DNA from: a virus
Direction: 5' to 3' (one strand)
Virus record (IMG/VR): IMGVR_UViG_3300037485_001282
Location: 79,702-143,701 of that record
Length of the DNA stretch: 64,000 bases
Positions 1-48,755 of this stretch are shown here, in pieces (position 1 is the stretch's first letter; the number at the start of each line of letters is the position of its first letter). The position numbers and the translations under genes are program-made. A model generated the notes under the pieces. It did no database searches. It worked only from the letters and a program-made list of their open reading frames with translations, and had not been told where the DNA came from.

Positions 1-115
1 CATTAGCGAAAAAGGTATTTGGTGCGTCTTCCATACCTATGTCATAAACTTCTTGTTCGACTGTCCCGTCCGAAACAAGTTCGATTGATTCTATTTCATC
101 TATATAATAATTCAT
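1..115 (-). CDS. 43: DNA polymerase gp43, C-terminal part (partial): begins with split-intein C-half
   Basis: Reading leftward from the ATG at 115-113 gives 38 residues that run off the window. They end VYDIGMEDAPNTFFAN, which fits intein block F (VYDL-V-HNFFAN type) just before the C-terminal splice junction. This is the C-half of the intein whose N-half ends the polymerase fragment at 1806-3941. The ATG follows the stop of the endonuclease gene by one base, and its GAGGAA ribosome site lies inside that gene's last codons, so the two are translationally coupled. The terminal HN and the C-extein lie outside the window; that the C-extein is the rest of the polymerase is inferred. Confidence 0.85.
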   Translation of the reverse strand, partial: MNYYIDEIESIELVSDGTVEQEVYDIGMEDAPNTFFAN

Positions 116-116
116 T

Positions 117-1766
117 TTATTCCTCATTCCAAATAAATTTTATGTGTCCGCAGTCCCATACTCTTCTATAGTTATTATTAATCATATTAGAAAATTCTGT
201 TAACGTTTCATCATAAATTGGTAATATTTTTTTTAAATTCTCTTTATAACATTTAAATCTACTTACATATATTTCTTCATCTTTAACATAAAAATAGTTT
301 GGAGAAGATAACCCACTATGTTTAAATCCAATATTTTCAAAATTTTTGCCATCAGATAATCTAAAATCGCACACAAATAGAACCTCTCTTGGGGTGAATT
401 TTTCTTTAAAATAATCAAACAATATTTTTTCGCTTTTGAAAATGCTTATGTTATTTAAATTACAATATCTTGTTATCTCCCACTGGTGTTTGGTGTTTGA
501 GCAAATACCCATTACTGATATTATCGCGTTGTTATAAAATAACCCAATTTTTATTTTTGATAATTTTACTCCATTTAAATTATTATGGGTACAAAAATTA
601 TTAAATTCTTTATCTGAAATTTCTTTAACTACACATTCGCTCGCGTCTATAATGTTGCTGATTTTATTTAATTTATTCTTTATTATCGATTTCCAAATCT
701 CCCTCTTCACAACATTTTTCCACTCAAATTCGAACATATGCAATAATTCTATATTTTTTTCTTTACATAATATTGTTTTATTTGCATGATAATTTTTCTC
801 TTTTTCAGTTTCTTCTTTATTGAACGAATGCCAATAATTACCATTGAATTCAATAGCCAGATTTTTATTTGGAACAAAAATATCAATTTCTTTCGGGGGT
901 ATAATATATCGCACATTTTCTACTATCGATTCATCGAGTTCCTTGATAAAATCACATACCTCTTTTTCTTGATGTGATCTAATTTGGCTGCAATATGGAC
1001 AACCATAGCCAGATTTATGATCATTTGGCGTTTGCCAAAATGACCCATGCTCTTTACATTTTATTTCTACTTTTTCTTTAGCTGATCGGTAAACGACAAA
1101 ACTATAATCATAAAGATCGCCATGTGATTTTTTAAAATCAACTATAGTTTCTTCTTGTGTTTTAAATGATCTTATGCTATTAAATTCGTTAGCGCATTTA
1201 GGGCAGCCATGTCCTAATAAGTGAATAGATGGTAATTGAAAGAATACACCGTGCTTTTTGCAGTGTATTTCTAATTTTTTGTCTTCCGTAAAGTTATTTA
1301 CGTAAGAATATAAGTTATTGTGTTTTTTATTAAGTAACTCATCCCATTTCTCGAACGAATAACTCAGCGCCTTACTAATGTTTTCTCTTTTGCATATTGG
1401 ACAACCTATTCCCCTAAAATGAGGAGCAGGGGCTTGCCAAAAAGAGCCATGCTTTTTACATATTATTTCTACTTTTTCCGAACAAGATACATATTTTACT
1501 TTTGAGTAGTCATATTTGTATTTGTGTTTTTCGTTAGATTTTTCTATAAACATTTCGTTGGTGAATGTTCTTTTAAGGGCATATGATTCTCTTCTACAAA
1601 TTGGGCACCCTAGGGTTCTACTAATATCTGCGTTTCTTTTTTTAAATTTTATACTGTGTTTATTACAAAACAGTTCTATTATTTTCTTGTCGTGGTCTAA
1701 AATTTTAATTACACTCACATGCGGCAAATGTTTTTCCACTCTAATTTTTATCTGATCAATGTTCAT
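117..1766 (-). CDS. Homing endonuclease (EDxHD/Vsr-like) inside the fractured polymerase gene
   Basis: This 549-residue protein lies between the two halves of the split polymerase gene and is not part of either. The N-terminal half holds four repeats of the type CKKHGSFWQ...GCPIC, each with a CxxC pair, probably small zinc-binding DNA-recognition modules. Residues about 300-360 read EIDIFVPNKNLAIEFNGNYW then H, the nuclease core of the Vsr-like EDxHD homing endonucleases. The C-terminal part resembles that of the endonuclease at 30330-32123. Free-standing endonucleases of this family are known inside genes fractured by split inteins. The role, cutting an intact polymerase allele to spread the insertion, is inferred. 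It has its own late promoter at 1785-1792. Confidence 0.85.
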   Translation of the reverse strand: MNIDQIKIRVEKHLPHVSVIKILDHDKKIIELFCNKHSIKFKKRNADISRTLGCPICRRESYALKRTFTNEMFIEKSNEKHKYKYDYSKVKYVSCSEKVEIICKKHGSFWQAPAPHFRGIGCPICKRENISKALSYSFEKWDELLNKKHNNLYSYVNNFTEDKKLEIHCKKHGVFFQLPSIHLLGHGCPKCANEFNSIRSFKTQEETIVDFKKSHGDLYDYSFVVYRSAKEKVEIKCKEHGSFWQTPNDHKSGYGCPYCSQIRSHQEKEVCDFIKELDESIVENVRYIIPPKEIDIFVPNKNLAIEFNGNYWHSFNKEETEKEKNYHANKTILCKEKNIELLHMFEFEWKNVVKREIWKSIIKNKLNKISNIIDASECVVKEISDKEFNNFCTHNNLNGVKLSKIKIGLFYNNAIISVMGICSNTKHQWEITRYCNLNNISIFKSEKILFDYFKEKFTPREVLFVCDFRLSDGKNFENIGFKHSGLSSPNYFYVKDEEIYVSRFKCYKENLKKILPIYDETLTEFSNMINNNYRRVWDCGHIKFIWNEE

Positions 1767-1784
1767 AAGGTATATCCTTAATCA

Positions 1785-1792
1785 TATTTATA
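1785..1792 (-). promoter_or_regulatory. T4-type late promoter for the endonuclease in gene 43
   Basis: On the minus strand the octamer reads TATAAATA, the exact T4 late -10 sequence. It ends 18 bases before the endonuclease ATG (1766), with a possible AAGGAT ribosome site between. It lies in the gap after the polymerase N-part, so the endonuclease can be expressed late and independently. Confidence 0.75.
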
Positions 1793-1805
1793 TAAATTTT
1801 AACAT

Positions 1806-3941
1806 TTATATGACTATAATTTTATCTCCAATTTTTAGGTTATGTGATTCTTTGTTTACCATGTTACTATTGGCGTCAATAGTAATTAACGGATGATCAG
1901 ATGTAACTGTAATTGTTTTTCCTGATTTCGTTTTTATCTTATATAATTTCTTTTTTGTCAGATGCTTTTCTATATATTTGACTTTGCCAGAAATTACATT
2001 TGATATGGTCGAATCAAACATAGGTAAAAGTAAGTTATTAGGGAAAACGAATTCTCTTCCATCATAATTTTTCTTGAAATTGATTGGTTCTTCTGTTTTT
2101 AATTCGGAAAAAATATCTTCTATTGCTATGTTTCTATTTTTACCTAAGTCATTGATAACCATGGACTTAGCCACGGAATCGGTATCTGCGTATATACAAA
2201 CATCATTAACGTTAATTGCGTTGTGTCTTTTCGCTAATTCCGTATCTTTAAATTTAGTTAAAAAATAGTTCTGAACCGTATCATTTACTGTTTTCGTTAT
2301 AGATTGTCCAGTTAAAGTCACCGCCATAGCATTATCTAGGTCATAAAATCTTGAATAAGGTGTCGATAAAAACCCATAAACAGAGTTCAAAAGCAGTTTG
2401 TAGTTGATTTGACGAGCATCGTGGGCGCTATATTCTGCTTTATTATTGTTTCTTTCTGCTTCTAACATTAACTCTTTATAATATTTTCTTTTATCAAACC
2501 ATTCAGAAATAAACGAAGGAACAATACCTTTAACATCTTGGCGATAGATAGCCCCATTGCCAGCCAAGCAGAAATTCTTTGCTTTAATTAACTTTGCTAG
2601 TTCCCTTATAGAAGTTTCTATGCCACTAAAAGTTACTAAATAGTCATCTATATCTTTACCAGCGATTAACTTACGTAAATCTGGAACATATTGACCATCG
2701 ACTCTTCCTATTTTAGTTTCTGGGCTAATGTTCCAACCCATCATAATAGAAGGATACAATGAAGTAGCATCGAAAGATACCGTCCATTCATGTAGTCCCT
2801 TTATAGGATCTTTAACGTAACCACCTGGAAACTTTTTAGGTTCTATGTCTCGTTTCACATCTGGAAGAACAATATTTTTCTTTGATAGTTCCGATAAGAA
2901 GGCACCATCAAGGACTCTAACAGTTTTCTGATAGAACTCGAAAGGAACTCGGCAACCATAGCAGAAACTGAAGAGAATATTTAGGAACTTCTTTTTTGCT
3001 TCTAGTTTCTTTAGGAGTCTAACGTCATGGACATTATACTCTACATATTTCTGCCAGTCGTTATTATAGAGATCAACTAGAGTTCCTGTGTATTCTAGTT
3101 TACGTTCCCCTAGTTCCTCTTCAGCAATAGAATCTAATTTCCAGCTTGGTCTAGCGGAAAAGGTATATGTTTTAAATACTTCTAACATATCAATACAAGA
3201 GATGCCAGCAATTGAATAAGTTTTCTTAATTTTTCCATTTTTCAAAGTAGTTTCTATTTCTTTAACTACTCCAATGGGACTTAAGTCACTTGCAGCGTCT
3301 TCGTGGAAGATTTTGTTAATTCTATTTACTATGTAGGGAATATCGAAAAAGTTACTATTCCAGCCACTAAGGAAATCTGGGTGACTGTTTCTAACAAAGG
3401 TCATGAATTGGTTTAGTAATTCATTTTCATTTGATATGATAGTTTTTTCGTATTTCTCGTTTGCTTCATCTAGGAAACTTGTATTAAAGTCTCTTTCAGC
3501 AAATATAAAGTATTTTTGCTGTTTAGTTGACCAAACAGTAATAATAGTTATTGGGAAGTTAGCATCTTCTGGTTTAGGGAATCCTTTTTCAGAATGCACC
3601 TCAATATCCAATAACCATATATCGAAGTCAGGAATGGTTAGTTCCTGACCTAGATAGTGGCTAACTATAAACTTAGTTTCTAGTGGAATGTCTGATTCAA
3701 ACAGTTCCATTCCACTTGCTTTAAGTCTTTCGATTTTCTTTTTATATGCGTAGATGGTATCTGTTTCTATTTTTCTTGCTGGATCACCGAAAATAGTTTT
3801 ATATTCTGGATTCTTTAAGAGTTTATCTTTCAAGAAAAAGAATAGAGGAGCGGGAAGACGCTTATGAACTTTATGTCCATCTTCATATTCCCACAGATTT
3901 ATTTCTGACTTTCGGTAATCAACAAAAATATTAGAATACAT
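1806..3941 (-). CDS. 43: DNA polymerase gp43, N-terminal part fused to split-intein N-half
   Basis: Residues 1-588 are a family B DNA polymerase of T4 type: exonuclease motifs at D112/E114, D200 and Y302/D306, motif A DATSLYPS at 391-398, motif B around KLLLNSVYG (515-523), and motif C stopping at YADTD (584-588). The next residue, Ser589, starts an intein N-half of 123 residues with block A (SVAKSMVI) and block B (TVTSDHPLIT). The protein then stops and an endonuclease gene follows; the intein C-half starts at 115. The chain lacks the polymerase thumb, so trans-splicing should be needed for a full enzyme. The start overlaps the upstream stop (TGATG) with an AAGGA ribosome site. Confidence 0.95.
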   Translation of the reverse strand: MYSNIFVDYRKSEINLWEYEDGHKVHKRLPAPLFFFLKDKLLKNPEYKTIFGDPARKIETDTIYAYKKKIERLKASGMELFESDIPLETKFIVSHYLGQELTIPDFDIWLLDIEVHSEKGFPKPEDANFPITIITVWSTKQQKYFIFAERDFNTSFLDEANEKYEKTIISNENELLNQFMTFVRNSHPDFLSGWNSNFFDIPYIVNRINKIFHEDAASDLSPIGVVKEIETTLKNGKIKKTYSIAGISCIDMLEVFKTYTFSARPSWKLDSIAEEELGERKLEYTGTLVDLYNNDWQKYVEYNVHDVRLLKKLEAKKKFLNILFSFCYGCRVPFEFYQKTVRVLDGAFLSELSKKNIVLPDVKRDIEPKKFPGGYVKDPIKGLHEWTVSFDATSLYPSIMMGWNISPETKIGRVDGQYVPDLRKLIAGKDIDDYLVTFSGIETSIRELAKLIKAKNFCLAGNGAIYRQDVKGIVPSFISEWFDKRKYYKELMLEAERNNNKAEYSAHDARQINYKLLLNSVYGFLSTPYSRFYDLDNAMAVTLTGQSITKTVNDTVQNYFLTKFKDTELAKRHNAINVNDVCIYADTDSVAKSMVINDLGKNRNIAIEDIFSELKTEEPINFKKNYDGREFVFPNNLLLPMFDSTISNVISGKVKYIEKHLTKKKLYKIKTKSGKTITVTSDHPLITIDANSNMVNKESHNLKIGDKIIVI

Positions 3942-5959: not shown

Positions 5960-7072
5960 ATGACATATAAGTTAGGAATCTTAAGTGACTTCCATTTAGG
6001 ATATAAAAATAACAGTGAAAACTACCTAACTATTATGGAAAATTATTTTCTGAAGACGCTTCCCTCGATACTTAAAGAAAATAAAATAAGTGATGTTCGA
6101 TTATTGGGGGATATATTTGATAATAGAAACACGATTAATGTAAGAACATTAAATATTGCTTTAAATATATTTAGATGGTATCAAACTAATTTACCACACG
6201 TTAAGTGGTCAATAGTTGTTGGAAATCACGATATTTACTATCATAATCGTTTAGATGTTAACTCTCTAGAGGTTTTTAGAGAGTTAAATAATATTAATAT
6301 AATTGATAAATTGACTATTGAAAAAATAGGAAATAAATCTATTGTTAGCGTTCCTTGGATTATAGATGGAGCAGAAGCGGATATTAAGTTTAAGGAGCTA
6401 ACAAACGGTACTAATATCTATGATCTGTGTTTAGGGCATTTCGATATTCAAGGATGTGAAATGCAAAGAGGACACGTATCTGAACATGGAATCCCCAAAG
6501 GAACATTTAAGAGTTTCAAAAAATTATTTTCTGGACATTTTCATATTAGAAACACAGGTAAAGATGATAAGATTACCTTTTGTGGTTGTCCCTATCAATT
6601 AACTTGGGGTGATTATGATAATACTAAAGGTTTCCATATTTACGATATAGATACTAATGAGACCACATTTATAGAAAATACAGATTCTCCTCAGTTTATT
6701 AAAATTACGGTCGAAGACTTTATTAGTAAAAACGTAGAGAAGATAAAAAAAGTAACTGGAAATTTTGTTAAGTTAATTATAGAAAAGCAAATAAAAGAAA
6801 GTGATACTATAAAGTTAATTCAGAGAATAGAGTCACTAAAGCCACTAAAATTAGATATAGAAAATAATACTTTAATATCTCTTGCTGAATCAGAAGAAGC
6901 AACTAAACTTGTAGAAAAATATAAAGATACTAATTTAATGTCTGGGGATTCTAATCTTTTCATGACTGATTACGTCGAAAATATTTTAGAAGTTAACGAT
7001 AAGGACATTAAGAAAGAATATTTAATTTCAATTCTTAATGATTTCTACCAAAAAGTAATAAAGGAAAAATAA
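5960..7072 (+). CDS. 47: Recombination endonuclease subunit gp47 (SbcD/Mre11-like)
   Basis: This 370-residue protein is the nuclease subunit of the gp46/gp47 complex, which trims DNA ends for recombination-dependent replication. The calcineurin-type metallophosphatase motifs are clear: LSDFHLG (8-14), LLGDIFDNR (near 48-56), VVGNHD (near 86-91) and the later LGHFDIQG and SGHFH. Its stop directly abuts the gp46 start, matching the T4 order 47-46. Ribosome site AAAGGA precedes the ATG. Length is close to T4 gp47 (339). Confidence 0.93.
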   Translation: MTYKLGILSDFHLGYKNNSENYLTIMENYFLKTLPSILKENKISDVRLLGDIFDNRNTINVRTLNIALNIFRWYQTNLPHVKWSIVVGNHDIYYHNRLDVNSLEVFRELNNINIIDKLTIEKIGNKSIVSVPWIIDGAEADIKFKELTNGTNIYDLCLGHFDIQGCEMQRGHVSEHGIPKGTFKSFKKLFSGHFHIRNTGKDDKITFCGCPYQLTWGDYDNTKGFHIYDIDTNETTFIENTDSPQFIKITVEDFISKNVEKIKKVTGNFVKLIIEKQIKESDTIKLIQRIESLKPLKLDIENNTLISLAESEEATKLVEKYKDTNLMSGDSNLFMTDYVENILEVNDKDIKKEYLISILNDFYQKVIKEK

Positions 7073-7312
7073 ATGGCTAATTTAGAATTTAAAGACATTA
7101 CCGTTAAGAACTTCATGAGTTTCGGTAATGTTGAGACTACTCTTGACTATAAGACTGGGCTTAATCTAGTTACTGGGAAAATAGAAGGCACTAATGCGGC
7201 AAATGGGGCAGGTAAATGTTTAAAAAAATCTACGGAAATTTTAGTAGATTTTGAAGATGATGCGACCAAAAAAGCATTTGAAAATTATATTCTAAGTTCC
7301 GAATATAAATAG
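7073..7312 (+). CDS. 46: Recombination endonuclease gp46, N-terminal fragment with 31-residue split-intein N-half
   Basis: Residues 1-48 are the start of an SMC-like ATPase, ending inside the Walker A loop as GTNAANGAGK. Cys49 then begins an intein N-half (CLKKSTEILV is block A), which stops at residue 79 after only 31 intein residues. Block B is not here; it lies in the downstream partner at 8316. A split between blocks A and B is atypical. The native P-loop has Ser after GK, and the partner supplies it (SHN then SCLLSDATSF). Without splicing neither product has a whole ATP site. The homing endonuclease gene follows after 18 bases. Confidence 0.93.
   Translation: MANLEFKDITVKNFMSFGNVETTLDYKTGLNLVTGKIEGTNAANGAGKCLKKSTEILVDFEDDATKKAFENYILSSEYK
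7304..7311 (+). promoter_or_regulatory. T4-type late promoter for the endonuclease in gene 46
   Basis: An exact TATAAATA overlaps the last codons and stop of the gp46 N-fragment and ends 19 bases before the endonuclease ATG (7331). This matches the arrangement in the polymerase gene (1785-1792). Confidence 0.75.
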
Positions 7313-7330
7313 TGGTATAGGAGATTCCCG

Positions 7331-8344
7331 ATGCCATTATCGAAAAAACAACAAACGGTTAAAAAAGAAAATTCAAAACGAGGGCCAACTTTTAGTCCGT
7401 TTTCTAAAGAATTCTATATGCATTATAAAGGCATGACCTTGGAAGAGGCAACTAAAGAAGCCAAAACAAAAAGACCATGTAATGTTGAATATTGGATTAA
7501 AAAAGGATTCAGTGTTGATGCCTCAATATTAAAAGTAAAAGATCATCAGAAAAAAACATCTATTATAAGAGTTGAAAAAGTTAATAATGGTGAACTTATA
7601 TATTTTGGGCCAAATCAGACAGAATATTGGAAAAATAGAGGGTTTACCGACGAAGAAGCAATATTAAAAGTTTCAGAAAGACAATCTACTTTTTCTAAGG
7701 TAAAATTAATAGAAAAATTGGGAGAAGAAAGGGGATTGGCGAGATGGAAAGAGAGACAGATTAAGTGGCAAAAAACACTGGGGGAGAAATCTAAAGAAGA
7801 AATATCTGAAATTAATAGAAAGAAATTAGTTACGCTGTCTAATATGCAAGAAAAATATGGTGAAGTGTTGGGTGAAGAAAAATATAATATCTGGAAAAAC
7901 AGTCATAACATGTTTTCCTCAAAAGAAGCAACTGAGTTTTTCAAAAAAATAACTGATTATATAGTTGATAATTTTCAAGTAAATAGAAAACAAATATATT
8001 TTGAGGACAATGATAATAATGAAATGTTCCTAAAAGACAACGACGGAAAACATTTTTTATATGATTATTGCGTTCGAGATTTATTTTTAATAATAGAATA
8101 CCATGGAATAAAATTTCACCCAAATAAAGATAAACTATCCGAAGAAGAGTGGGCCGAGTGGAAATGTCTTTTTTCAGAAAATACAGCAGAATATGTTTAT
8201 TCAAGAGATCAATATAAGAAAAAATTGGCTATGGACTGTGGATTTTCTTTTTTCGAAGTTTTCTCAGACGATCCAGACAAATTTAACAGAGTAATAGAAT
8301 TTATAAGGAAACATCATGAAGACAACAATAGGCACGATAAATGA
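7331..8344 (+). CDS. Homing endonuclease inside the fractured gp46 gene
   Basis: This 337-residue protein sits between the two halves of gp46. Residues about 20-110 contain two or three repeats of the type EYWIKKGFSVDASILKV / EYWKNRGFTDEEAILKV, likely DNA-recognition modules. The C-terminal part reads YDYCVRDLFLIIEYHGIKFH, a Vsr-like endonuclease core, followed by GFSFFEVFSDD. It is therefore likely a free-standing homing endonuclease, of a different subtype from the one in the polymerase gene, which carries CxxC modules. The start is set by TAGGAG eight bases upstream. Its end overlaps the gp46 C-part by 29 bases, and it has its own late promoter at 7304. Confidence 0.8.
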   Translation: MPLSKKQQTVKKENSKRGPTFSPFSKEFYMHYKGMTLEEATKEAKTKRPCNVEYWIKKGFSVDASILKVKDHQKKTSIIRVEKVNNGELIYFGPNQTEYWKNRGFTDEEAILKVSERQSTFSKVKLIEKLGEERGLARWKERQIKWQKTLGEKSKEEISEINRKKLVTLSNMQEKYGEVLGEEKYNIWKNSHNMFSSKEATEFFKKITDYIVDNFQVNRKQIYFEDNDNNEMFLKDNDGKHFLYDYCVRDLFLIIEYHGIKFHPNKDKLSEEEWAEWKCLFSENTAEYVYSRDQYKKKLAMDCGFSFFEVFSDDPDKFNRVIEFIRKHHEDNNRHDK

Positions 8345-10340
8345 TTTCTACGAAAAATTTCCAGAATATAAAGGGAAAATTTCAGTAAAAACCCCATATG
8401 GATTTAAGAAAATCTTAGAAGCGAAGATTACTGATTACTCAGTTCCTATGGAATTAGTCACTGAATCAGGTAAGCAAATAGTAGGTTCTAAAAAGCATCT
8501 AGTAAAAAACGCAGATGACCAATGGGTTACTTTAAGCGACTATAAAATTGATGATTTAATTAAAACTGAAAGCGGAATTGAAAAAATTACGTCACTCAAG
8601 TCGCTCCAAGTTGCTGAGTATCTTTATGATATTCAAGTAGCTGAAGTTGAGCAATATTACTCAAATGGAATATTAAGTCACAATAGTTGCTTATTATCCG
8701 ATGCGACCTCGTTTGCTTTATATGGTAAAGTAATGCGAGGAGCTAAAGTTACTAAGGATCTTATAGTAAATAAGTTTAATAAAAAAGACTGCGTAGTTAA
8801 GTTAAATTTACTTATCGATGGGGAACCTTATAAAATTGTTCGTTCAATTAAACCAACGGAACTTAAAGTTTATTTTGGTGAATCGCAAGAAGAAATGAAA
8901 TTCGATTCAATGGCGCATACTCAAGAGTGGCTAGAAAAGAAACTTGGTATTTCTCATTTATGCTTTAATAATATAATCGTTCTTAACGTTGCTTCTTCAG
9001 TTCCTTTCTTAGATATGGACGCTGCTAAAAAGAGAGAAGTAATAGAAAATGTTCTTCAATTAAATTCTTATTCTAAAATGGCAAATATGGCTAAAGATTT
9101 TTACTTAGATCTAAAGACAAATATAAAAGTCTATGATACCGAATACAAATCATCTTTAAGAGACTTGGAAACTGCTAAAGGAACTCAGGAGAAACTATTA
9201 AAGGAACAAATGGAATTCGATAGTAGAAAAAAAGTTGCTACCGATAGAATTAAAAATCAAATCGAAGCTACTTCTAAGGAACTTGAAGAAACTAAGGTAA
9301 AGATAGTAAATAAAGATTACAATGAGAAAATAACGGAACTCCAAGGAACTAGAGATAAATTAATTTCGGAAATTAATAACTGCCAGAATAAAATAAACTT
9401 AAGTAAATCTGATTTAGATAATAGTAACGCTGCTATTAAGAGATTAGTCGAGAAACCATATTGTCCAACTTGTCATACTCCTACCGATAATCCACTTATA
9501 GTTGACTTTTTAAATTCTCTAAAAGACAAAGTATCTAAAAATACTTCAATTATAGAAGAACAGAATAACCTAAAGGAAACTAATAGAACTAAAGTTACTA
9601 AGATAGAAGAAACTATAAGTAAAGCGAAGACAATAATTAACGATCAGATACGTTTAAAGCAGCGAGTAGGAATATTAACTTCTCAACTTGAATCTTTTAA
9701 TAAGGAACTCACAACAGAAAATTCTAGAGAGTTTTCAGTTAATGTTATATCAAACGATGATATTAAGTTATTAGAAGAAAAGGTTAAGCAGAAAGAGAAA
9801 ATATTAGATACCGCTAATACTGATTTCAAGCACTATGAAGTTATTAGAAACATATTGGGAGAAGAGGGTCTTAGAAAATTCGTAGTTTCTAAAATTCTTC
9901 CATTATTTAATACCAAGTTAAATGAGTATTTAAAGATTCTTGGATCTGAATATACGGTTGCTTTTAATATGAACTTAGAAGAAAAGATAATGAACTGCAT
10001 TAAAGAAGAAAGACCATATTCTTCATTTTCTAGTGGAGAAAAGAAGCGAATAGATCTCAGTGTATTATTGTCACTAATGGATATTTCTAGATTGCAGAAC
10101 TCGGTAGATACTAATATTTTAGTTCTTGATGAAGTTCTAGATACTAGTATGTGTTCCGATGGTGTTGAAAATTTCTTAGAACATCTTAAAGAAGGATTTA
10201 AACAAGCTTATCCAGATAAGTGCGTTTATGTAATTTCTCATAGAAAAGAAATTTCGAACGATGTCTTTGATAGAAAAATTTCGTTAATTAAGAGAAAAGG
10301 ATTTACTGAAATCGAATCAATTACTGAATTTTCTCGCTAG
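8316..10340 (+). CDS. 46: Recombination endonuclease gp46, C-terminal part preceded by 123-residue split-intein C-half
   Basis: Residues 1-123 are the larger intein part: block B-like TESGKQIVGSKKHLV (49-63), block F YLYDIQVAEVEQYYSNG and block G ILSHN (119-123). The extein starts at Ser124 and continues gp46: coiled coil, zinc hook CPTC near residue 385, signature SFSSGEKKRIDLS and Walker B ILVLDEVLD. Splicing to the 48-residue N-extein would give about 599 residues, against 560 in T4. gp46 is the ATPase partner of gp47. The ATG has AAGGAAAC upstream within the endonuclease gene. The 3' end overlaps the convergent gene at 10321 by 20 bases. Confidence 0.95.
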   Translation: MKTTIGTINDFYEKFPEYKGKISVKTPYGFKKILEAKITDYSVPMELVTESGKQIVGSKKHLVKNADDQWVTLSDYKIDDLIKTESGIEKITSLKSLQVAEYLYDIQVAEVEQYYSNGILSHNSCLLSDATSFALYGKVMRGAKVTKDLIVNKFNKKDCVVKLNLLIDGEPYKIVRSIKPTELKVYFGESQEEMKFDSMAHTQEWLEKKLGISHLCFNNIIVLNVASSVPFLDMDAAKKREVIENVLQLNSYSKMANMAKDFYLDLKTNIKVYDTEYKSSLRDLETAKGTQEKLLKEQMEFDSRKKVATDRIKNQIEATSKELEETKVKIVNKDYNEKITELQGTRDKLISEINNCQNKINLSKSDLDNSNAAIKRLVEKPYCPTCHTPTDNPLIVDFLNSLKDKVSKNTSIIEEQNNLKETNRTKVTKIEETISKAKTIINDQIRLKQRVGILTSQLESFNKELTTENSREFSVNVISNDDIKLLEEKVKQKEKILDTANTDFKHYEVIRNILGEEGLRKFVVSKILPLFNTKLNEYLKILGSEYTVAFNMNLEEKIMNCIKEERPYSSFSSGEKKRIDLSVLLSLMDISRLQNSVDTNILVLDEVLDTSMCSDGVENFLEHLKEGFKQAYPDKCVYVISHRKEISNDVFDRKISLIKRKGFTEIESITEFSR

Positions 10341-12558
10341 ATTGAAGTTTCCTAAGAAGGCTTAATATTTTTTCTGAATTATAATAATGAGTAGTACCGT
10401 AGAATTGATTTAAAATTTCTTTATTTTCTATCGGTTTGTTGTTTATCATAAAATCTTTTATTACCAAATATGGTCCATCGTAATATTGCGAGAGGACCAT
10501 TTTTGTTCCTTCTCTGAATTTATTAATTAGATCATAGTCAATTTCAATATCATTTGAGTTGAAATCTAATTTCTTTGTATAGTAAATCATTAAACTTTTA
10601 AAACTATTTAAAACTTCAGCGTATTGGCGTAATAAACCAATCTTATCTGAATTTTTAGCAATTAATTTATCTAAAATTTGAACTCGTCTAAAAATTCTAT
10701 TGATACTCCAATACTTTCTTCTCGTTTCGTCCTTTAAGTTTTCTTTCAATAAACTAACCATTTGGTCCATTTCTTCGTCGATACTAACCGCATAAGAATC
10801 AGCCATTATAGATAATCGTTTGTTTGAACCACCTGCTTTTGTTTTTCTTTCTGATGGATCTTTTCTTCTCATTTCTTTTTGTTTGAATGAAATTATTCCA
10901 TAACTTTCATTATTTTCGTCTGTTAACTGAAGAATAAACTGATTTACTTTCTTCGGTCTTCCCATTACACTCTTGCCAGTTCTCTTGGCTTGTCTCTTTT
11001 TATAAATTTCATAATCAGAATCATCATTTATATCCAATACAGACGCTTTGATGTTACGTGAACGCATGTATTCGGATATTAAAGTACTAAAAACTCTAAT
11101 CTTACCCTTATCCTGCGCTATAGACACTAGAGTAGAATCTTCGTGTCCATGTGCGTACATGTCAATAATAGTAAAAATAAACTTTATTAACTTATCGTTG
11201 CTTGTAAATTCTATGGATTGAAAATATGATTTCATATTATCCATCAATAACGAGGAATCACAAATAATTGCTTCACCAGTTGGCGATGGTTTAAAAATTT
11301 CGTCCCATTTCAATGCCGAAAAATCTAAACCAGATTGCTCAAATATCCATTTTAAATTACTTCTATTTTCTTCATTGAAAACAAAAGTAGCTACATCGGT
11401 TCTATTGGATGCTTTTAGTGAAAAATTATAAACTTTCGAAGTTTTAACTCCGTTTCTTGAAAGTGCTTCAAATTCAATTAACTTAATTTCAGCATCTTTC
11501 TTAATTTTACCAGCCAATTCAGGATCGAAAGCACCTAAGTCACCTGTGGAAGAAATTTTCAAATCAATAATATCAATTTCGCCATTATTAGCTAAATGTT
11601 CTAAATATTCTCTGGATTCAATGATCTCTGGAATATTTACTAATTGTTCCAAGTATGTTTCAATCATAGAAAAAAGATCGCTAAACTCTGGTCTTGAGTG
11701 ATCGTTTAAAATAGTTCTAATATCATCTAGTAACTCTGGAGTGTGGCTTAACTTTAATGAAACTTTAATGTCATCTTTGCTATCTGTTACTTTAAAGGAT
11801 ACTTCGTTACTTTCATTTAACTTACTAGGGACTACAACGAAACTAAAAAGAGCAGAGATTCCACCTTGTCCCCTTAGTGATCCTTTAGTTTCAGTAACTA
11901 CTATTTCTGGATTATTTAGTGACTCTCTTTTACTAGCAGCGTTAACTCTAATATACTGTCTAGCAGAACCTTCGGTCTTTTCCTCTGTAGGTAAATGATG
12001 AGATGCTCTGAACATTTTAGCATAGTAATATACTTTGTTACCATTAATTTCATCTTCGCCTTCAGTAGTAAACTTCTGAGGATCCTCTGAATTTTTATTA
12101 ACATTGAAATCTTTTAAAACTTTATTCTTAATGTCATTTATTTTCTCCGTAATTCCCAATTTCTCATAGTACTTTTCTGATTGAGTTTCACTATAAAATA
12201 ATTTATGCTCAAATGTGTCACTCTTAGGTTTAATTTCCTTAGTGGAAGATGTTCTTTTTTGAAGGTCGATCTGTTTAGTTAGAAATATTGCATTTTGGTC
12301 ACTAATTTTACTATCGTAAACTACTATTTCCTTTGCTTCGTTATTACATACATAAGTTAATCCATTAAGAATATCATTAGATGATGTTTCCTCAGATACA
12401 AAGAAATCAGCTATACATATAGGAAACACTAGTTCACTAGCGCCACCCATAAAGTTCCTATGAGTTTTAAGTAATTCCTCATTTTCAAAAATTTTAGTTT
12501 TACTTAAATGGTAAATCTCGTTAATCTTAGTTAAGAAAGTATCTCTGTAATTTTTCAT
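10321..12558 (-). CDS. Large protein of unknown function (745 residues)
   Basis: I do not recognise this protein. It is hydrophilic, with no signal peptide or membrane segment. The N-terminal 450 residues look like mixed alpha/beta domains. Near residue 545 there is a basic stretch with GRPKK, the core of an AT-hook, followed by lysine and arginine rich sequence (KEMRRKDPSERKTKAGGSNK), so DNA binding is possible. The C-terminal 170 residues look helical. AAGGAACT precedes the start, and a near-consensus late promoter (GATAAATA, minus strand, 12578-12585) lies 20 bases upstream. It stands alone: a 500-base non-coding stretch is upstream and convergent gp46 downstream. Confidence 0.75.
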   Translation of the reverse strand: MKNYRDTFLTKINEIYHLSKTKIFENEELLKTHRNFMGGASELVFPICIADFFVSEETSSNDILNGLTYVCNNEAKEIVVYDSKISDQNAIFLTKQIDLQKRTSSTKEIKPKSDTFEHKLFYSETQSEKYYEKLGITEKINDIKNKVLKDFNVNKNSEDPQKFTTEGEDEINGNKVYYYAKMFRASHHLPTEEKTEGSARQYIRVNAASKRESLNNPEIVVTETKGSLRGQGGISALFSFVVVPSKLNESNEVSFKVTDSKDDIKVSLKLSHTPELLDDIRTILNDHSRPEFSDLFSMIETYLEQLVNIPEIIESREYLEHLANNGEIDIIDLKISSTGDLGAFDPELAGKIKKDAEIKLIEFEALSRNGVKTSKVYNFSLKASNRTDVATFVFNEENRSNLKWIFEQSGLDFSALKWDEIFKPSPTGEAIICDSSLLMDNMKSYFQSIEFTSNDKLIKFIFTIIDMYAHGHEDSTLVSIAQDKGKIRVFSTLISEYMRSRNIKASVLDINDDSDYEIYKKRQAKRTGKSVMGRPKKVNQFILQLTDENNESYGIISFKQKEMRRKDPSERKTKAGGSNKRLSIMADSYAVSIDEEMDQMVSLLKENLKDETRRKYWSINRIFRRVQILDKLIAKNSDKIGLLRQYAEVLNSFKSLMIYYTKKLDFNSNDIEIDYDLINKFREGTKMVLSQYYDGPYLVIKDFMINNKPIENKEILNQFYGTTHYYNSEKILSLLRKLQSSEKIQ

Positions 12559-42523: not shown

Positions 42524-43234
42524 ATGCCATTCCCATCTAATAATCTTTACAATAAAGATAACGACATGAATCTTCTTGATTTCAGGAAGATAATTAATGA
42601 CGTTTCTAGATCTTATTTGTTTATGTTGGAGATGCCGAACATCGATACCGATGCGAGAAAATTAACATCATTCGCTAGATCAACGACAATGCCTGGATAT
42701 AATATCGAAGAAACTTCTTTTAAATTTCAAACAGCTACAATAAAACTAGGCTATGGGGCTACTTTTAATGATTGGACCGTTGAATTTTTAAACGATCAAG
42801 TTTATTCTTTAAGAAGTAAATTTTTGGCTTGGATGTCGCAAATATATGATCCAGTTAGAGTTATGTCAATGTCAGCCAATTCCTATAAGTATGATGGTGT
42901 TAAAATTCATCAATTATCTAGAACTGGGAAAAAAGTTCAAACATGTCAATTTGTTGGGCTATTTCCTAAATCAATATCAGATATTAACTTAAAACACGAT
43001 GCGACTGAATTGCAGACATTTACGGTTAATTTCGCTTATGATTATTTTACTATTGATTCTGGAAACCCTCTGGAAGCGACAATAGACCTCGCTACAGGAA
43101 ATACGGACGGAAATGGTATAGGATTGAGTGGGATCGTGGGAAGAGCGCCAGCAGCGGGAACTCCGCAAAATAACGTAGCTGGAGTATTTGATGTATATGG
43201 TGGAATGAAGAAAGCAAAATCCGCATTAATATAA
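42524..43234 (+). CDS. Tail tube protein gp19 paralogue, second copy
   Basis: This 236-residue protein is clearly related to the preceding tube protein. Both share DFRKIINDVSRSYLFMLEMP versus SFRQTIRDVSRPYLFMVEMP, TTMPGYNIEETSFKFQTATI, FNDWTVEFLNDQVYSLRSKF, and FAYDYFTID. It differs in a longer N-terminus and C-terminal tail. It lies behind a strong terminator with only AAGGAAAA as ribosome site, so it should be made at a lower level. It might form a special ring (tube tip or initiator) rather than the tube body; that is inference. TnpB follows. Confidence 0.85.
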   Translation: MPFPSNNLYNKDNDMNLLDFRKIINDVSRSYLFMLEMPNIDTDARKLTSFARSTTMPGYNIEETSFKFQTATIKLGYGATFNDWTVEFLNDQVYSLRSKFLAWMSQIYDPVRVMSMSANSYKYDGVKIHQLSRTGKKVQTCQFVGLFPKSISDINLKHDATELQTFTVNFAYDYFTIDSGNPLEATIDLATGNTDGNGIGLSGIVGRAPAAGTPQNNVAGVFDVYGGMKKAKSALI

Positions 43235-43252
43235 AAAATATCTTTTATATTG
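43227..43252. repeat. AT-rich hairpin at the left side of the TnpB insertion
   Basis: AATATAAAA (43228-43236) and TTTTATATT (43243-43251) pair perfectly with a six-base loop. It overlaps the stop of the gp19 paralogue. It may be the left-end hairpin of the IS200/IS605-type element, though a weak terminator is also possible. Confidence 0.4.
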
Positions 43253-43279
43253 TCAATAAAATTTAGTTTATGATATAAT
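43250..43279 (+). promoter_or_regulatory. Sigma70-type promoter for tnpB
   Basis: TTGTCA (43250-43255), 18-base spacer, extended -10 TGATATAAT (TATAAT at 43274-43279), only six bases before the ATG at 43286. The message would be leaderless or nearly so. Confidence 0.6.
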
Positions 43280-43285
43280 ATTACC

Positions 43286-44416
43286 ATGAACCTGACCATT
43301 AAATGTAAACTATTAGCTAACCAAGAACAACATCAGCAATTGCGGGACGTAATGATAGCATTTAATAATGCTTGTAACTGGGTTAGTGAAGTTTGTTTTA
43401 ATAAAAAGATTTTTAATAAGTTCGGACTACATAAAGAAGTTTATTACGAAACAAGACAGCGTTTTAATCTTTCTAGTCAGATGGTTATTCGAGTAATAGG
43501 CAAAGTAGCGGATAGTTATAAAGATTTTAAAAAGCGAGAAACCCAGCACGAATTTAAAGATTTAGGGGCAATCGATTACGACGAAAGAAATTTCGGAGTC
43601 AAAAAAGATGGAATTTCTATTTCTATCTTAGGTGGAAGAACAATAATGGATTATCGTTCAAGAAAACCTCTCTCAGAATACAAAATTTGTAGCCAGTGCA
43701 AACTATCCTATGATAAGCCAAAGAACAAGTTTTATGTTTTGTTGTCGGTTGAAGAGATGGAACCAGTTCCAGATAAAGTTGAAAATTTTATTGGTGTTGA
43801 TATGGGAATTGTTAAGTTGGCAACTTGTTCTGATGGAGAAATTTTTACTGGTGAAGCAGTTGAGAATCATAGAGTTAAACTAACATTATTAAAGACGAAA
43901 TTGCAGAGTAAGGGAAGTAAGTCAGCGAAACGGCATTTAAAAAAGATTTCGAGAAAAGAAGGAAGGTTTAAGAGAGATGTAAATCATTGTATTAGCAAGA
44001 AGATAGTAAAGAAAGCAAAGGCACTTGGCGTCGGGGTAAAGATCGAAGATCTTTCTTTTGACAACAAAGAACCAGTTATGAAGTTTAACCAGAAACAGCG
44101 TGATAATAACGCTAAGATGGGTAAATGGGCTTTCGGTCAATTGACCAACTATCTTGGGTATAAGGGGAAAAGAGCAGGAGTTCCTGTTTTGTTTGTTAAT
44201 CCCGCTTATACTTCGCAAAAATGCAGCAAGTGTGGACATACTGAAGAAGATAACCGTCTGTCCCAATCTGAATTCTGTTGTATATCCTGTGGATACAAAG
44301 AAAACGCAGATATTAATGCTGCAATTAATATTTCTCGGGCTGCCGTCAACCAGCCTATTGTAGCCACTAGAAAAAGTGCGTTACAAGCCCCGCTATTAAT
44401 TGGTGTGGGTAGTTGA
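43286..44416 (+). CDS. tnpB: TnpB, RNA-guided nuclease of IS200/IS605 type
   Basis: This 376-residue protein is a full-length TnpB. The RuvC-like catalytic residues are present: Asp172 in IGVDMGIVKLA, Glu254 in VKIEDLSF and Asp342 in ENADINAAINI. A zinc ribbon lies between (Cys313, Cys316 and Cys332, Cys335). TnpB cuts DNA matching a guide encoded next to the right end of its element. All key residues are intact, so it is probably active. It sits alone among tail genes with its own promoter. The guide RNA is expected to come from the 3' end of the gene and run into 44418 onwards. Confidence 0.92.
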   Translation: MNLTIKCKLLANQEQHQQLRDVMIAFNNACNWVSEVCFNKKIFNKFGLHKEVYYETRQRFNLSSQMVIRVIGKVADSYKDFKKRETQHEFKDLGAIDYDERNFGVKKDGISISILGGRTIMDYRSRKPLSEYKICSQCKLSYDKPKNKFYVLLSVEEMEPVPDKVENFIGVDMGIVKLATCSDGEIFTGEAVENHRVKLTLLKTKLQSKGSKSAKRHLKKISRKEGRFKRDVNHCISKKIVKKAKALGVGVKIEDLSFDNKEPVMKFNQKQRDNNAKMGKWAFGQLTNYLGYKGKRAGVPVLFVNPAYTSQKCSKCGHTEEDNRLSQSEFCCISCGYKENADINAAINISRAAVNQPIVATRKSALQAPLLIGVGS

Positions 44417-44440
44417 CGATCGAGATGCCAAAAGATTAAA
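44330..44440 (+). ncRNA. Predicted omega/reRNA region of TnpB (approximate limits)
   Basis: In IS200/IS605 elements the TnpB guide RNA is made from the 3' end of tnpB and the right end, with the guide in the flank. Here the right end finishes at TAGTTGAC (44410-44417), so the guide should begin about 44418 (GATCGAGATGCC). Limits are inferred, not seen. Confidence 0.4.
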
Positions 44441-44467
44441 GACAAAAACCAACAAGGAGACATTCAA

Positions 44468-45265
44468 ATGTCAGATCGACCAACTTTTTCAGCTAGTGAC
44501 TTAAAGAAACTATTAGCTACTAAATCTTCCCCAGAGAATGTAGTAAAACTATGCTACAGTCAAAGAGAAGTTTATATTAAGCCAATTAAGATTAAGGATA
44601 AGAAAGAAATCTTAAAGTCCATTGAAACTAAGAATGAAGTAGTTATCAATAAAGCCTTTGATGATATTTTGGAAAAATTCGTAGAAGCCGTAGATGGTCA
44701 AGAGTTTACTATTGGTGAACTTACGACTCAGGAACGTCAGCAACTTTTAGTTCATATTAAAGTCGCCGCTTCGGGAACTAACGCTAATATTATGCACGAA
44801 TGTCCAGCATGTGGCGACGTTAATCAGAATATTAAATATGATTTATCAAAAATGTACGTGAAGAACTACGTGAAGCCAGAAACTGGAGAAGAGATAATTA
44901 TTTCCACTCTCTCAGGAACCATTAAGGTTAAATTAGGTCCAGTTACAAGAAATAAAGAAATTGAGATTGAAAACTATATTAAGCGAAACAAGATAACGCA
45001 AACAACCGAAAAGAACTTCGTCATGATGGCTGCTGCTATTAAATCAATTTCTATTGTTCAGGATGATATAGAGAATGAAGTTAGCATGAGTATGGCGGAA
45101 TTAATTGATATTTTCGATAGTTTACCAGAGAATGAACTTGAGAAAATAATGAATTATTTCAAGTCTTCTGACTTCGGAGCAAAAATGCCGTTTGATTTTA
45201 AGTGTCAAAAATGTGGACACGAATCAGAACAAGAGGTCAACGTTATAGCTTTTTTTATCAATTGA
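44468..45265 (+). CDS. gp26/gp51-like baseplate or tail-assembly chaperone with zinc site
   Basis: This 265-residue protein resembles the T4 baseplate hub family of gp26/gp51: an N-terminal beta region (YIKPIKIKDKKEILKSIETK), a helical body, and two CxxC pairs (HECPACG near residue 113, FKCQKCGHES near 247) that could bind one zinc. It directly precedes an overlapping small gene and the tape measure gene, the position of tail-assembly chaperones in other phages. Near its end GCT TTT TTT ATC contains a T TTT TTT slippery site (45250-45256); a -1 shift would fuse it to the next frame. CAAGGAGAC precedes the ATG. Confidence 0.7.
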   Translation: MSDRPTFSASDLKKLLATKSSPENVVKLCYSQREVYIKPIKIKDKKEILKSIETKNEVVINKAFDDILEKFVEAVDGQEFTIGELTTQERQQLLVHIKVAASGTNANIMHECPACGDVNQNIKYDLSKMYVKNYVKPETGEEIIISTLSGTIKVKLGPVTRNKEIEIENYIKRNKITQTTEKNFVMMAAAIKSISIVQDDIENEVSMSMAELIDIFDSLPENELEKIMNYFKSSDFGAKMPFDFKCQKCGHESEQEVNVIAFFIN

Positions 45266-45294
45266 TGCTAATGAACTCCTGTTACCAGCAGGAG
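45250..45294 (+). promoter_or_regulatory. Candidate -1 ribosomal frameshift site
   Basis: T TTT TTT (45250-45256) is in the correct phase for a -1 shift from the 265-residue gene. Past the shift the frame continues TAT CAA TTG ATG into the 92-residue frame. An AGAGGT about 13 bases upstream could act as an internal Shine-Dalgarno stimulator. A hairpin CTCCTG/CAGGAG (45276-45294) lies 19 bases downstream, farther than usual. Confidence 0.55.
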
Positions 45295-45543
45295 CTTAAT
45301 TATGAAATAGAGTTACTCTGTTGGGGTGATAAGTTATTTACTTACTCCGAAGTAGAAAATCTAGATACTCATGAGTTTGAAGTGTTTAGGACTATCTTTA
45401 AGGAAAAAGCAGAGTCAGAAGCTAAAGCCAAGCAAGAGTTCATTAAAAATACTTTTGAATTTGCTAGAAAATGCGTAGAAGTCATTTGTAAAACTATTTC
45501 AGGTGCGTTCGGAACAAAAACGACTTCTAATAAAGTTAATTGA
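45265..45543 (+). CDS. Small tail-assembly protein, likely made as a -1 frameshift fusion
   Basis: This frame gives 92 residues from the ATG at 45265, overlapping the preceding stop as TGATG. It is open well upstream of that point (to 45202) in the -1 frame. The ATG has no ribosome site. The protein (YEIELLCWGDKLFTYSEVEN, then helical with KAESEAKAKQEF) lies just before the tape measure gene, like the T part of GT-type tail chaperones. It may be made as a fusion via the slippery site at 45250 or by coupled re-initiation. Confidence 0.6.
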   Translation: MLMNSCYQQELNYEIELLCWGDKLFTYSEVENLDTHEFEVFRTIFKEKAESEAKAKQEFIKNTFEFARKCVEVICKTISGAFGTKTTSNKVN

Positions 45544-45554
45544 TTTTTAATTTT

Positions 45555-45562
45555 TATAAATA
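45555..45562 (+). promoter_or_regulatory. T4-type late promoter
   Basis: Exact TATAAATA only nine bases before the tape measure ATG at 45572; the leader would be about three bases long. Confidence 0.75.
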
Positions 45563-45571
45563 AAGATAATT

Positions 45572-48500: not shown

Positions 48501-48748
48501 CGCTTAATCGCCAGGGTCTATCTTTTATTGACGAGATTTCAAAGCGACTTGATTATACTTCAGAGCATAAAGAAGATATGGTAAAAGATATAGTAAATCA
48601 AATAACTAAAGTTATTAAAGATAACGTTAAAGCCGATAAAAAAGAAACTTATGCTACTTCTTCTAAGCAACCTATTTTCCTTGAAGATAATTCCGATGGT
48701 TCCCAATTAACTAAATTATTAGCTATGGGTATGTTAAATGGAAGGTAA
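45572..48748 (+). CDS. Tape measure protein (gp29-like role)
   Basis: This 1058-residue protein is the longest in the window. It has a charged helical N-terminus (to about 150). A hydrophobic, tryptophan-rich middle (about 205-400) has repeated units like GVIWGVIKIGFKLMW and VMWATIKGIAKTVF and probable membrane helices. Then comes a helical region, and a C-terminal segment RGGIVKPQPHGVNIIAAEAG then SPEVILPLNRQ, the GxPEAVLPL signature of tape measure proteins. T4 gp29 is 590 residues, so the tail may be longer if length scales. It follows the chaperone pair and precedes baseplate genes. A late promoter lies just upstream. Confidence 0.82.
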   Translation: MASNFTTDQLKKMLQENQAKLDSLDSSDIVASKELKKSIDKISKLLLRTEKGILKELKESNKKNQKKKDDSVDIKRLAEENKKDLKNRFSEFYQRNQLNRKAINDSYIRKIDDINHRYKKDLRKAFSTLNENLHADILVNQKVIEKYLNRFADYMTEKITKVFNVAFSYLKNATLNAFSKIKGLVTSLGDKLGSVIKGTWEKLKGAIFHPIDSVKTIISNSLSYVWQGIKKIGSLIKDAFVFVIKKIWEGLKWVAGVIWGVIKIGFKLMWTILSGIGKFVFSMFKWISTFLLKVIWGTLVKITSFLLSAIWEGIKTVGSFLMSVMWATIKGIAKTVFQIAFTIVKTIANMVVTLITSALAPWLGLIALVGAGVYLLGYWMGWWGSKGNSETSKAGINVGGKEIKQGGIFETIGNWVKKALGIGESFAVWLCDQIVWAWDKLWVVIKKTWGITTDFGGWILDQLKIFWNWATSKEKRDDYRLFEKNIEFYEKQLENLMMLDPDKIKEYTENLKADKVSLEKLSDTMPLLSKLIIKIEDMWTKYIKPIINDVIKKIESAWEWISSLVKGKGSWSSPDENSILGSIYKSLFGTNSINWASPSYDSLLGQIYNIIFGKNTIDFKSSLGLVGFIYSTIYDINFFIIDSIEKYILPVFNSIMDFLSNIIEIISPDYAEKVSQISGSVKLNISNRVSEAKGFQLTNTKEKISELSESIKSPSNGESKEHFEKRKEETEKLIKALESKVGGREKSDNEKKRAEKSFAIALRNTTKVLSGLQVSVSSLLGSTLDENQIKALSNRPRNFWKSRGFDTDFVNTPLDAYSELRDLYLAKDKSYYGKNLKNLQADFNKNNPDWKKYIDKDLIGKLNTMRSSIDENRLQIQESLDNMYEQKASSLATGWSFGKKELNWYKKDAEKYMDENLYKIFTGDAFNSYLNPMSRFFTKIREIDPQYGLARGGIVKPQPHGVNIIAAEAGSPEVILPLNRQGLSFIDEISKRLDYTSEHKEDMVKDIVNQITKVIKDNVKADKKETYATSSKQPIFLEDNSDGSQLTKLLAMGMLNGR

Positions 48749-48755
48749 TTAAAAT

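What the first reader, a model, noticed from the sequence alone, without database searches (positions are those of the whole stretch)
7073..10340. Fractured gp46 with a split intein cut between blocks A and B
Seen: the N-fragment ends in Walker A at GAGK, followed by only 31 intein residues holding block A. The partner at 8316 has a 123-residue intein part that carries block B, F and G, ending in SHN before the Ser of the P-loop. Known: most natural split inteins divide after block B, where a homing endonuclease domain would lie. A few atypical ones with short N-halves (AceL-TerL, VidaL) are known. Inference: a natural atypically split intein in a phage recombination ATPase, with an endonuclease gene between the parts, of about 154 residues in all.
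Basis: partly seen in the sequence, partly recalled or inferred. Interest (0 to 1): 0.9.

Follow-up and report, generated by a model that had tools for sequence, protein, structure and literature searches.

The report
Phage repair gene rejoined by split intein
A phage's DNA-recombination ATPase gene is broken in two by a gene for a likely DNA-cutting enzyme, and the two protein halves carry matching pieces of a self-excising protein (an unusually divided split intein) that should stitch them back together; it belongs to a known kind of arrangement, in a gene where my searches found no earlier report of it.

Summary
gp46 (Rad50/SbcC-like ATPase) is encoded by two ORFs: 7073-7312 (48 gp46 residues ending GAGK, then 31 intein residues with Cys1) and 8316-10340 (123 intein residues ending SHN, then gp46 from Ser+1). 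A 337-aa gene (7331-8344) lies between; its C-terminal domain models as Vsr/I-Bth0305I-like (moderate evidence). Without the intein pieces, 599 aa remain that align gaplessly at the junction with an intein-free relative (603 aa). Among 16 distinct complete gp46 P-loop inteins (window plus 15 in IMG/VR), 15 are split at the same place, 11 of them with a homologous gene in the gap; one is contiguous, indicating that no residues are lost at the split. The contiguous relative models as a HINT fold (pLDDT 95.6); VidaL is the nearest solved structure (Z 21.3). The split lies before helix alpha-1, as in VidaL (S1), not after it as in AceL-TerL (S2), and the N-piece carries an extra helix. Best reading: a working S1-split intein in a fractured gp46 gene with a free-standing homing endonuclease. 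New member of a known kind. Splicing and cleavage are inferred, not shown.

The parts
5960..7072 (+). gp47/SbcD-like nuclease gene directly upstream (context)
   Evidence: phrog_100 E=5.9e-76; its stop codon abuts the gp46 start
7073..7312 (+). N-part ORF: gp46 residues 1-48 plus N-intein, stop TAG
   Evidence: phrog_77 and phrog_21388 matches end at residue 48; a weaker match to phrog_25514 (unknown function, E=0.004) runs to residue 72
7217..7309 (+). N-intein, 31 aa (Cys1, block A, predicted extra helix)
   Evidence: comparison with the contiguous L032 intein
7331..8344 (+). Free-standing Vsr-like (putative homing) endonuclease gene, 337 aa
   Evidence: aligned with 10 gap genes of relatives; AF2 model; Foldseek and VIA-align matches to Vsr and I-Bth0305I; phrog_22677, unknown function
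7913..8335 (+). Catalytic-type domain of the endonuclease (about residues 195-335)
   Evidence: model range aligned to 1vsr, 3hrl and 3r3p; E256, G259, H263, N265 invariant in 11 of 11
8305..8309 (+). AAGGA, ribosome-binding-site-like, before the C-part start
   Evidence: read; inference
8316..10340 (+). C-part ORF: C-intein plus gp46 from Ser+1 to the end
8316..8684 (+). C-intein, 123 aa (helix alpha-1, block B His, block F, block G SHN)
   Evidence: PF14890 E=4.3e-07 on 8316-8690 (30.3 bits, under the curated cut-off of 35.8); profile E=1.3e-38; alignment A5
8685..10337 (+). C-extein of gp46, 551 aa, starting with the P-loop Ser
   Evidence: phrog_77 E=4.2e-83; 50% identity to L006 gp46 residues 49-598

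Best explanation
gp46 is a fractured gene. The two ORFs are translated separately; the 31-aa N-intein binds the 123-aa C-intein and they fold into one HINT domain. Cys1 of the N-intein makes the thioester with Lys48, Ser+1 of the C-part takes over the N-extein, the C-terminal Asn (helped by the preceding His) cyclises, and a 599-aa gp46 with an intact GAGKS P-loop is released. Neither part alone holds a whole Walker A motif, so gp46 ATPase should exist only after trans-splicing. The gene in the gap encodes a free-standing Vsr-like endonuclease that probably cuts intein-free gp46 alleles near the P-loop and so spreads the whole insert by recombination. Shown: anatomy, exact extein junction, homology, conservation of the split and its neighbours, predicted folds of a contiguous homologue and of the nuclease. 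Inferred: binding, splicing, cleavage, homing.
For: Exact anatomy. Gapless junction against intein-free L006; the gp46 C-part has one match in the 143.7-kb own record, no second copy. Same P-loop site and same split in 15 of 16 distinct complete gp46 inteins; in the contiguous one (L032, identical over the 4 kb compared to L033 from another sample) the sequence runs across the split position. Splicing residues kept in all 30 chosen rows of A5: block-B-type His, the Asp of block F, the S-H-N end. The contiguous homologue models as HINT at pLDDT 95.6; VidaL is the best match by sequence (E=1e-14), Foldseek (TM 0.81/0.84) and VIA-align (Z 21.3, rmsd 1.7 over 137, tied with NrdJ-1 at 21.2). Among seven close split relatives, pairwise dN/dS is below 1 wherever defined: N-intein 0.07-0.57 (18 of 21 pairs), C-intein 0.06-0.32 (21 of 21), nuclease 0.18-0.43 (10 of 10 pairs among the five that have it). 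Nuclease domain: 1vsr Z 8.4 (rmsd 3.4 over 108), 1cw0 Z 8.9 (rmsd 7.9 over 128), I-Bth0305I 3r3p Z 7.8 (rmsd 2.8 over 96).
Against: No splicing or cleavage data. The N-intein alone is not significant by profile (E=0.14). Foldseek E-values for the nuclease are weak (best 0.075), Z 7.8-8.9 is at the level that the tool says can be a common arrangement, and a mitoribosomal chain scores Z 8.3. A relative of the nuclease (Caulobacter phage Cr30) stands beside a TerL gene that shows no intein. The window's own two halves were not co-folded; the model is of L032, 42% identical to the window C-intein. Block B lacks the usual Thr (GSKKH). Selection was measured in relatives, with synonymous distances often near saturation, not in the window's own lineage.
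Confidence: 0.87

Rival explanations
1. A decayed intein: the nuclease gene broke the intein open, splicing is lost and gp46 is dead or works as two pieces.
For: The P-loop is cut in two and no function was tested; the N-intein has weak sequence similarity.
Against: The same split recurs in 15 of 16 gp46 inteins over large divergence, including four without a nuclease gene (L024, L034, L035, L038); splicing residues are kept; dN/dS is below 1 in relatives; the C-extein aligns over its whole length.
Confidence: 0.06
2. The gap is removed at RNA level (group I/II intron) or skipped by ribosomes, so the intein is made as one chain.
For: Nuclease genes often sit in introns (recalled); N-part and nuclease happen to share a reading frame, with a TAG between.
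Against: No Rfam match at gathering threshold over the window; the relaxed scan of 7050-8750 gave nine hits, none an intron family and none near its cut-off. The gap runs from 27 bases to over 1 kb among relatives and the nuclease gene is missing in four; each ORF has its own start with a purine-rich stretch before it.
Confidence: 0.03
3. Sequencing or assembly error broke one contiguous gp46-intein gene.
For: The record is one metagenomic assembly.
Against: Contigs of other IMG/VR samples carry the same layout; the gap holds a conserved 337-aa ORF.
Confidence: 0.01
4. The split intein splices, but the gene in the gap is a passenger of other or no function rather than the homing agent.
For: Four of 15 split relatives lack it; no cleavage test; the fold match is moderate; a relative in phage Cr30 lies beside an intein-free TerL.
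Against: Homologous genes in the same gap in 11 of 15. Of the 21 phage records with a relative I opened five: in PA5oct (UvsX), vB_VmeM-32 (DnaB), LR756500 (PhoH-like) and CP21 (DNA polymerase) it lies between intein-bearing ORFs, in Cr30 it does not. Part of it also matches gap genes of a split helicase gene in L013/L014. E and H of the catalytic-type motif are invariant.
Confidence: 0.25

Closest known systems
VidaL intein (PDB 6vgv)
   Same: Best match by sequence profile, Foldseek and VIA-align; natural atypical split with a short N-piece directly after strand beta-2 (S1; PMC13014065, passages); helix alpha-1 lies in the C-piece.
   Different: The VidaL N-piece is 16 aa; here 31 aa (23-31 in the family) because of an extra helix. 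Host gene gp46, inserted GK|S; the two UvsX inteins of this type seen here are inserted SG|SGK.
AceL-TerL / GOS-TerL / Cat split inteins (CatC 6dsl)
   Same: Natural split between blocks A and B, short N-piece (25 and 37 aa; PMC11766414, passages); CatC is second by sequence (E=1.5e-12).
   Different: AceL-TerL and GOS-TerL split after helix alpha-1 (S2); here alpha-1 is in the C-piece. Different host gene.
Fractured genes with gp41-1, NrdJ-1 and similar split inteins and free-standing Vsr-like endonucleases (Dassa et al. 2009; paper not held, recalled)
   Same: Host gene in two ORFs each with an intein part, a nuclease gene of Vsr type in the gap.
   Different: Those known inteins are split at the canonical site after block B (recalled); here before alpha-1, and the host gene is gp46.
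I-Bth0305I homing endonuclease catalytic domain (PDB 3r3p) and Vsr (1vsr, 1cw0)
   Same: Fold of the C-terminal domain of the gap gene.
   Different: Sequence identity 9-16% in these alignments; the long N-terminal region with repeated YW..KG(F/Y) motifs has no convincing match.

Membership tests
Intein (HINT splicing domain) | Cys/Ser at position 1 at the start of block A | tested here: met
   Cys49 after GAGK; Cys1 in 16 of 16 gp46 inteins (L035 read from the frame)
Intein (HINT splicing domain) | Block B His, block F, C-terminal HN followed by S/T/C | tested here: met
   H61, D105, S121-H122-N123 and Ser124 invariant in A1; A5; the usual block-B Thr is absent. Block names are recalled
Intein (HINT splicing domain) | HINT fold | tested here: met
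   For the contiguous homologue L032, not for the window's own halves: pLDDT 95.6, VidaL Z 21.3
Intein (HINT splicing domain) | Exteins join exactly into the host protein | tested here: met
   L006 residues 1-48 and 49-598 with no gap
Natural atypical (S1) split intein | Chain break between block A and helix alpha-1, complementary halves on two ORFs | tested here: met
   A5 alignment against contiguous L032; helix 34-44 of the L032 model, read as alpha-1, is in the C-piece
Natural atypical (S1) split intein | Trans-splicing activity | not testable with these tools
   needs an assay
Fractured gene | Nuclease-type gene lying free-standing between the two intein-bearing ORFs | tested here: met
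   in 11 of 15 split gp46 genes including the window
Vsr/I-Bth0305I-type homing endonuclease | Vsr-like fold with conserved acidic and His residues | tested here: inconclusive
   Vsr and I-Bth0305I lead the lists (Z 7.8-8.9; Foldseek E 0.075-0.27) and E256 and H263 are invariant in 11 of 11, but the scores are moderate and an unrelated chain scores Z 8.3
Vsr/I-Bth0305I-type homing endonuclease | Site-specific cleavage of the intein-free allele | not testable with these tools
   needs an assay
Self-splicing intron | Group I or II intron core in the gap | tested here: not met
   no intron family among Rfam matches

The most novel reading that the evidence does not exclude
S1-fractured inteins form one mobile lineage that sits in the P-loop of many phage ATPases (gp46, gp41/DnaB, UvsX, PhoH-like and helicase genes) and cycles between states: contiguous, split, split with a nuclease gene in the break, and back to contiguous by deletion (L032 lies inside the split clade). 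In gp46 this puts the element in charge of a recombination protein that its own homing may need: the nuclease cuts, and gp46, active only after trans-splicing, may help process the ends.
Probability: 0.3. Interest if true: 0.7.

Novelty: new member of a known kind. Interest (0 to 1): 0.52.

Why it matters
Natural inteins with very short N-pieces are few and useful for protein labelling (PMC13014065, passages, names VidaL, PolB16, AceL-TerL and GOS-TerL). Here are 15 homologous natural pairs split before alpha-1, with N-pieces of 23-31 aa, plus one contiguous natural version of the same intein, so the cost and effect of splitting can be compared within one family. The coexistence of contiguous, split and split-plus-nuclease alleles at one gp46 site makes the order of events in gene fracture testable.

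Tried and rejected
Introns: Rfam at gathering threshold and relaxed, no intron family. Sequence search of PDB with the nuclease alignment: two hits, E 0.3 and 0.61, not relevant. Pfam gave nothing for the gap gene up to E=1. Mixed N-piece and C-piece alignments by MAFFT (A3, A4) misplaced the short N-pieces and were dropped; A5 without separate N-piece rows was used for the model.

Re-fusion of L032: on C-intein data with a gp41 outgroup the alternative (15 split gp46 as one clade) is not rejected (p-AU 0.108); within an 11-row group the 9 split rows as one clade are rejected only weakly (p-AU 0.036 extein, 0.047 C-intein, 0.030 both), with a very long outgroup branch and after the group had been seen on a tree. 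C-intein and extein trees give L032 different partners.

Rows dropped before counts: of 61 loci, L026 and L027 (contigs of L002/L003), L050 and L052 (contigs of L004/L005) were left out or replaced by the earlier locus; L025 was counted with L024 (same C-intein), L030 and L031 with L029, L033 with L032; L078 is cut off and not counted. The scan works through peptide patterns, so relatives may be missed. The L035 N-piece was two residues short and corrected. For gp41 loci the split and nuclease states were only skimmed.

Cultured phages with this gp46 intein: searches of 50,697 phage records with C-intein plus extein start listed 12 of 709, 30 of 275 and 20 of 2323 matching records; none of the listed ones was a gp46 with the intein; unlisted rows were not seen.

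Literature: intein with gp46 and phage (5 papers), split intein with Rad50 and phage, intein with SbcC and phage, naturally split intein with phage and metagenom, Vsr with homing endonuclease and intein: listings only, plus passages of PMC2988022, PMC7090010, PMC11766414, PMC13014065 and PMC3229294. No split gp46 intein was seen in what I looked at. Dassa et al. 2009 and the AceL-TerL and VidaL primary papers were not read.
Full report
What is there. Window ORF 7073-7312 encodes 48 residues of gp46 ending in the Walker A lysine (NGAGK) followed by 31 residues beginning with Cys. ORF 8316-10340 begins with 123 residues ending SHN and continues with gp46 from the Ser that completes the P-loop. 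ORF 7331-8344 (337 aa) lies between and overlaps the C-part by 29 bases. gp47 (5960-7072) is directly upstream (phrog_100). The C-part is SbcC/gp46-like (phrog_77, E=4.2e-83); the N-part matches phrog_77 and phrog_21388 up to residue 48, and a family of unknown function, phrog_25514, weakly up to residue 72. The record is a 143.7-kb IMG/VR viral contig with one match to the gp46 C-part.

The junction is exact. An intein-free relative (L006, 603 aa) aligns with the window N-extein over 1-48, and the whole C-part aligns with it from Ser124 (L006 residue 49) to near the end, with no gap at the joint; no printed alignment includes intein residues, though the print for the C-part was cut after its best alignment. 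The spliced product would be 599 aa.

It is a family. A peptide-pattern scan with four C-inteins gave 61 loci in IMG/VR. Counting near-copies and duplicate contigs once and leaving out the cut L078, 15 distinct complete gp46 inteins plus the window remain. All 16 sit at GK|S or GK|T of the P-loop. Fifteen of 16 are split at the same position, with N-pieces of 23-31 aa. In 11 of these 15 a homologous 336-367-aa gene fills the gap (11 of 11 share E256, G259, H263, N265); in four (L024, L034, L035, L038) the gap is 27-271 bases with no such gene. One, L032 (identical over the 4 kb compared to L033 from another sample), is contiguous: the N-piece runs directly into EEITIGELN..., the segment with which split C-pieces begin, so nothing appears lost at the split. 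The C-exteins of L024, L029 and L038, the three tested, match phrog_77.

Fold. AlphaFold2 of the contiguous L032 intein reached mean pLDDT 95.6. VidaL is the top hit by sequence profile (E=1e-14), Foldseek (E=5e-11, TM 0.81/0.84) and VIA-align (Z 21.3, rmsd 1.7 over 137 residues; NrdJ-1 is tied at 21.2). The model has a strand (7-11), an extra helix (14-21), a loop at residues 22-30 in the block with mean pLDDT 89, then a short strand and helix 34-44. The family's split falls at about residues 29-32, before helix 34-44. PMC13014065 (passages) distinguishes natural atypical splits after beta-2 (S1: VidaL, PolB16) from those after alpha-1 (S2: AceL-TerL, GOS-TerL). The window is therefore S1-like, with an added helix in the N-piece; equating helix 34-44 with alpha-1 is my reading of the alignment.

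Is it kept functional? The His of block B, the Asp of block F and SHN are invariant in all 30 chosen rows of A5. Among seven close split relatives dN/dS is below 1 for N-piece, C-piece and nuclease in every defined pair (three of 21 N-piece pairs had saturated synonymous sites, and many other synonymous distances are high). The N-piece alone is short and weakly alike: profile E=0.14, but 0 of 2000 shuffles reach its best score and 2 of 2000 its mean score.

The gap gene. Pfam gives nothing; PHROG gives a family of unknown function. Its model is good in the C-terminal domain (block means of pLDDT 89-95 over residues 241-330; whole chain 78.9). Foldseek ranks Vsr endonuclease first (E=0.075, probability 0.99) and lists I-Bth0305I (E=0.27, probability 0.87). 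VIA-align gives 1cw0 (Vsr) Z 8.9 with rmsd 7.9, 3hrl (putative endonuclease-like protein) Z 8.8 with rmsd 2.4, 1vsr Z 8.4 with rmsd 3.4 and I-Bth0305I Z 7.8 with rmsd 2.8. This is moderate evidence; a mitoribosome chain scores Z 8.3. Together with its place between intein parts it makes a Vsr-like homing endonuclease the likely reading.

Wider setting. The same layout occurs in other phage ATPase genes: UvsX of cultured Pseudomonas phage PA5oct (17-aa N-piece counted from Cys, 477-aa gene in between, C-part), DnaB of cultured Vibrio phage vB_VmeM-32, many DnaB/gp41 loci with N-pieces of about 55-72 aa, a PhoH-like gene in LR756500 and a helicase gene in L013/L014. The DnaB label for vB_VmeM-32 and the PhoH and helicase labels are mine, by eye. 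Contiguous relatives were seen in TerL of Klebsiella phage Menlow, in UvsX (my label) of Salicola phage SCTP-2 and in several gp41 loci. Against a strict link, the Cr30 relative of the nuclease lies between small and large terminase genes with no intein in sight.

Evolution. On the C-intein tree, among 16 gp46 rows, presence of the gap gene (L032 counted as absent) changes at least four times and split/contiguous once. L032 nests within split relatives, which suggests re-fusion by deletion of the gap, but support is only moderate (p-AU 0.108 in one test; 0.030-0.047 in three).

Verdict. It is a new member, in a host gene where my searches found no earlier report, of the known fractured-gene split-intein arrangement, with an S1-type split like VidaL's. 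My estimates: 0.97 that these are intein parts, 0.87 that they trans-splice, about 0.6 that the gap gene is an active homing endonuclease. PMC2988022 (passage) lists gp46 and gp47 as possible helpers of intron homing in T4, which makes the idea of an element lodged in its own homing machinery worth testing.

Noticed in passing
window 1-3941, - strand, and L021 2828-3829, - strand: A second fractured gene in the same phage: family-B DNA polymerase (label mine) ending YADTD|S... with a canonical-type N-intein (ORF 1806-3941), a 549-aa gene with an IEFNGNYWH motif (117-1766), and a C-part with a C-intein ending VHN that starts near window 127 and runs out of the window.
   Followed up: partly
L022 (own record 43000-49000), - strand: A third fractured gene in the same phage: a ribonucleotide-reductase-like gene (label mine) split by a canonical-type intein with a 413-aa gene (IEFNGDYWH motif) in the gap; its C-part also holds a separate contiguous mini-intein.
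   Followed up: partly
   Followed up: partly
L092 2111-3133 (Caulobacter phage Cr30): A relative of the gap gene lies between terminase small- and large-subunit genes; the large subunit shows no intein by eye.
   Followed up: no
L012 (Campylobacter phage vB_CcoM-IBB_35 TerL): TerL carries a contiguous intein and further intein parts split around other ORFs, one annotated as a homing endonuclease.
   Followed up: no
L013 4159-6876 and L014 3389-6249: A helicase-like gene split with a short N-intein (CLDPNTEIEVDIPGYTEQEI...) and a gap gene that matches the middle of the window's nuclease (residues 94-189) but has a GIY-YIG-looking C-terminus by eye.
   Followed up: no
L035 3404-4720: The gp46 N-part with its N-intein is carried on one 438-aa ORF together with a metallo-phosphoesterase (phrog_1649), as if gp47 and the N-part of gp46 were fused.
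   Followed up: no
window 10321-12558, - strand: 745-aa ORF without a clear PHROG family, convergent with gp46 and overlapping its end by 20 bases; a similar ORF lies at the same place in L006 by eye.
   Followed up: no
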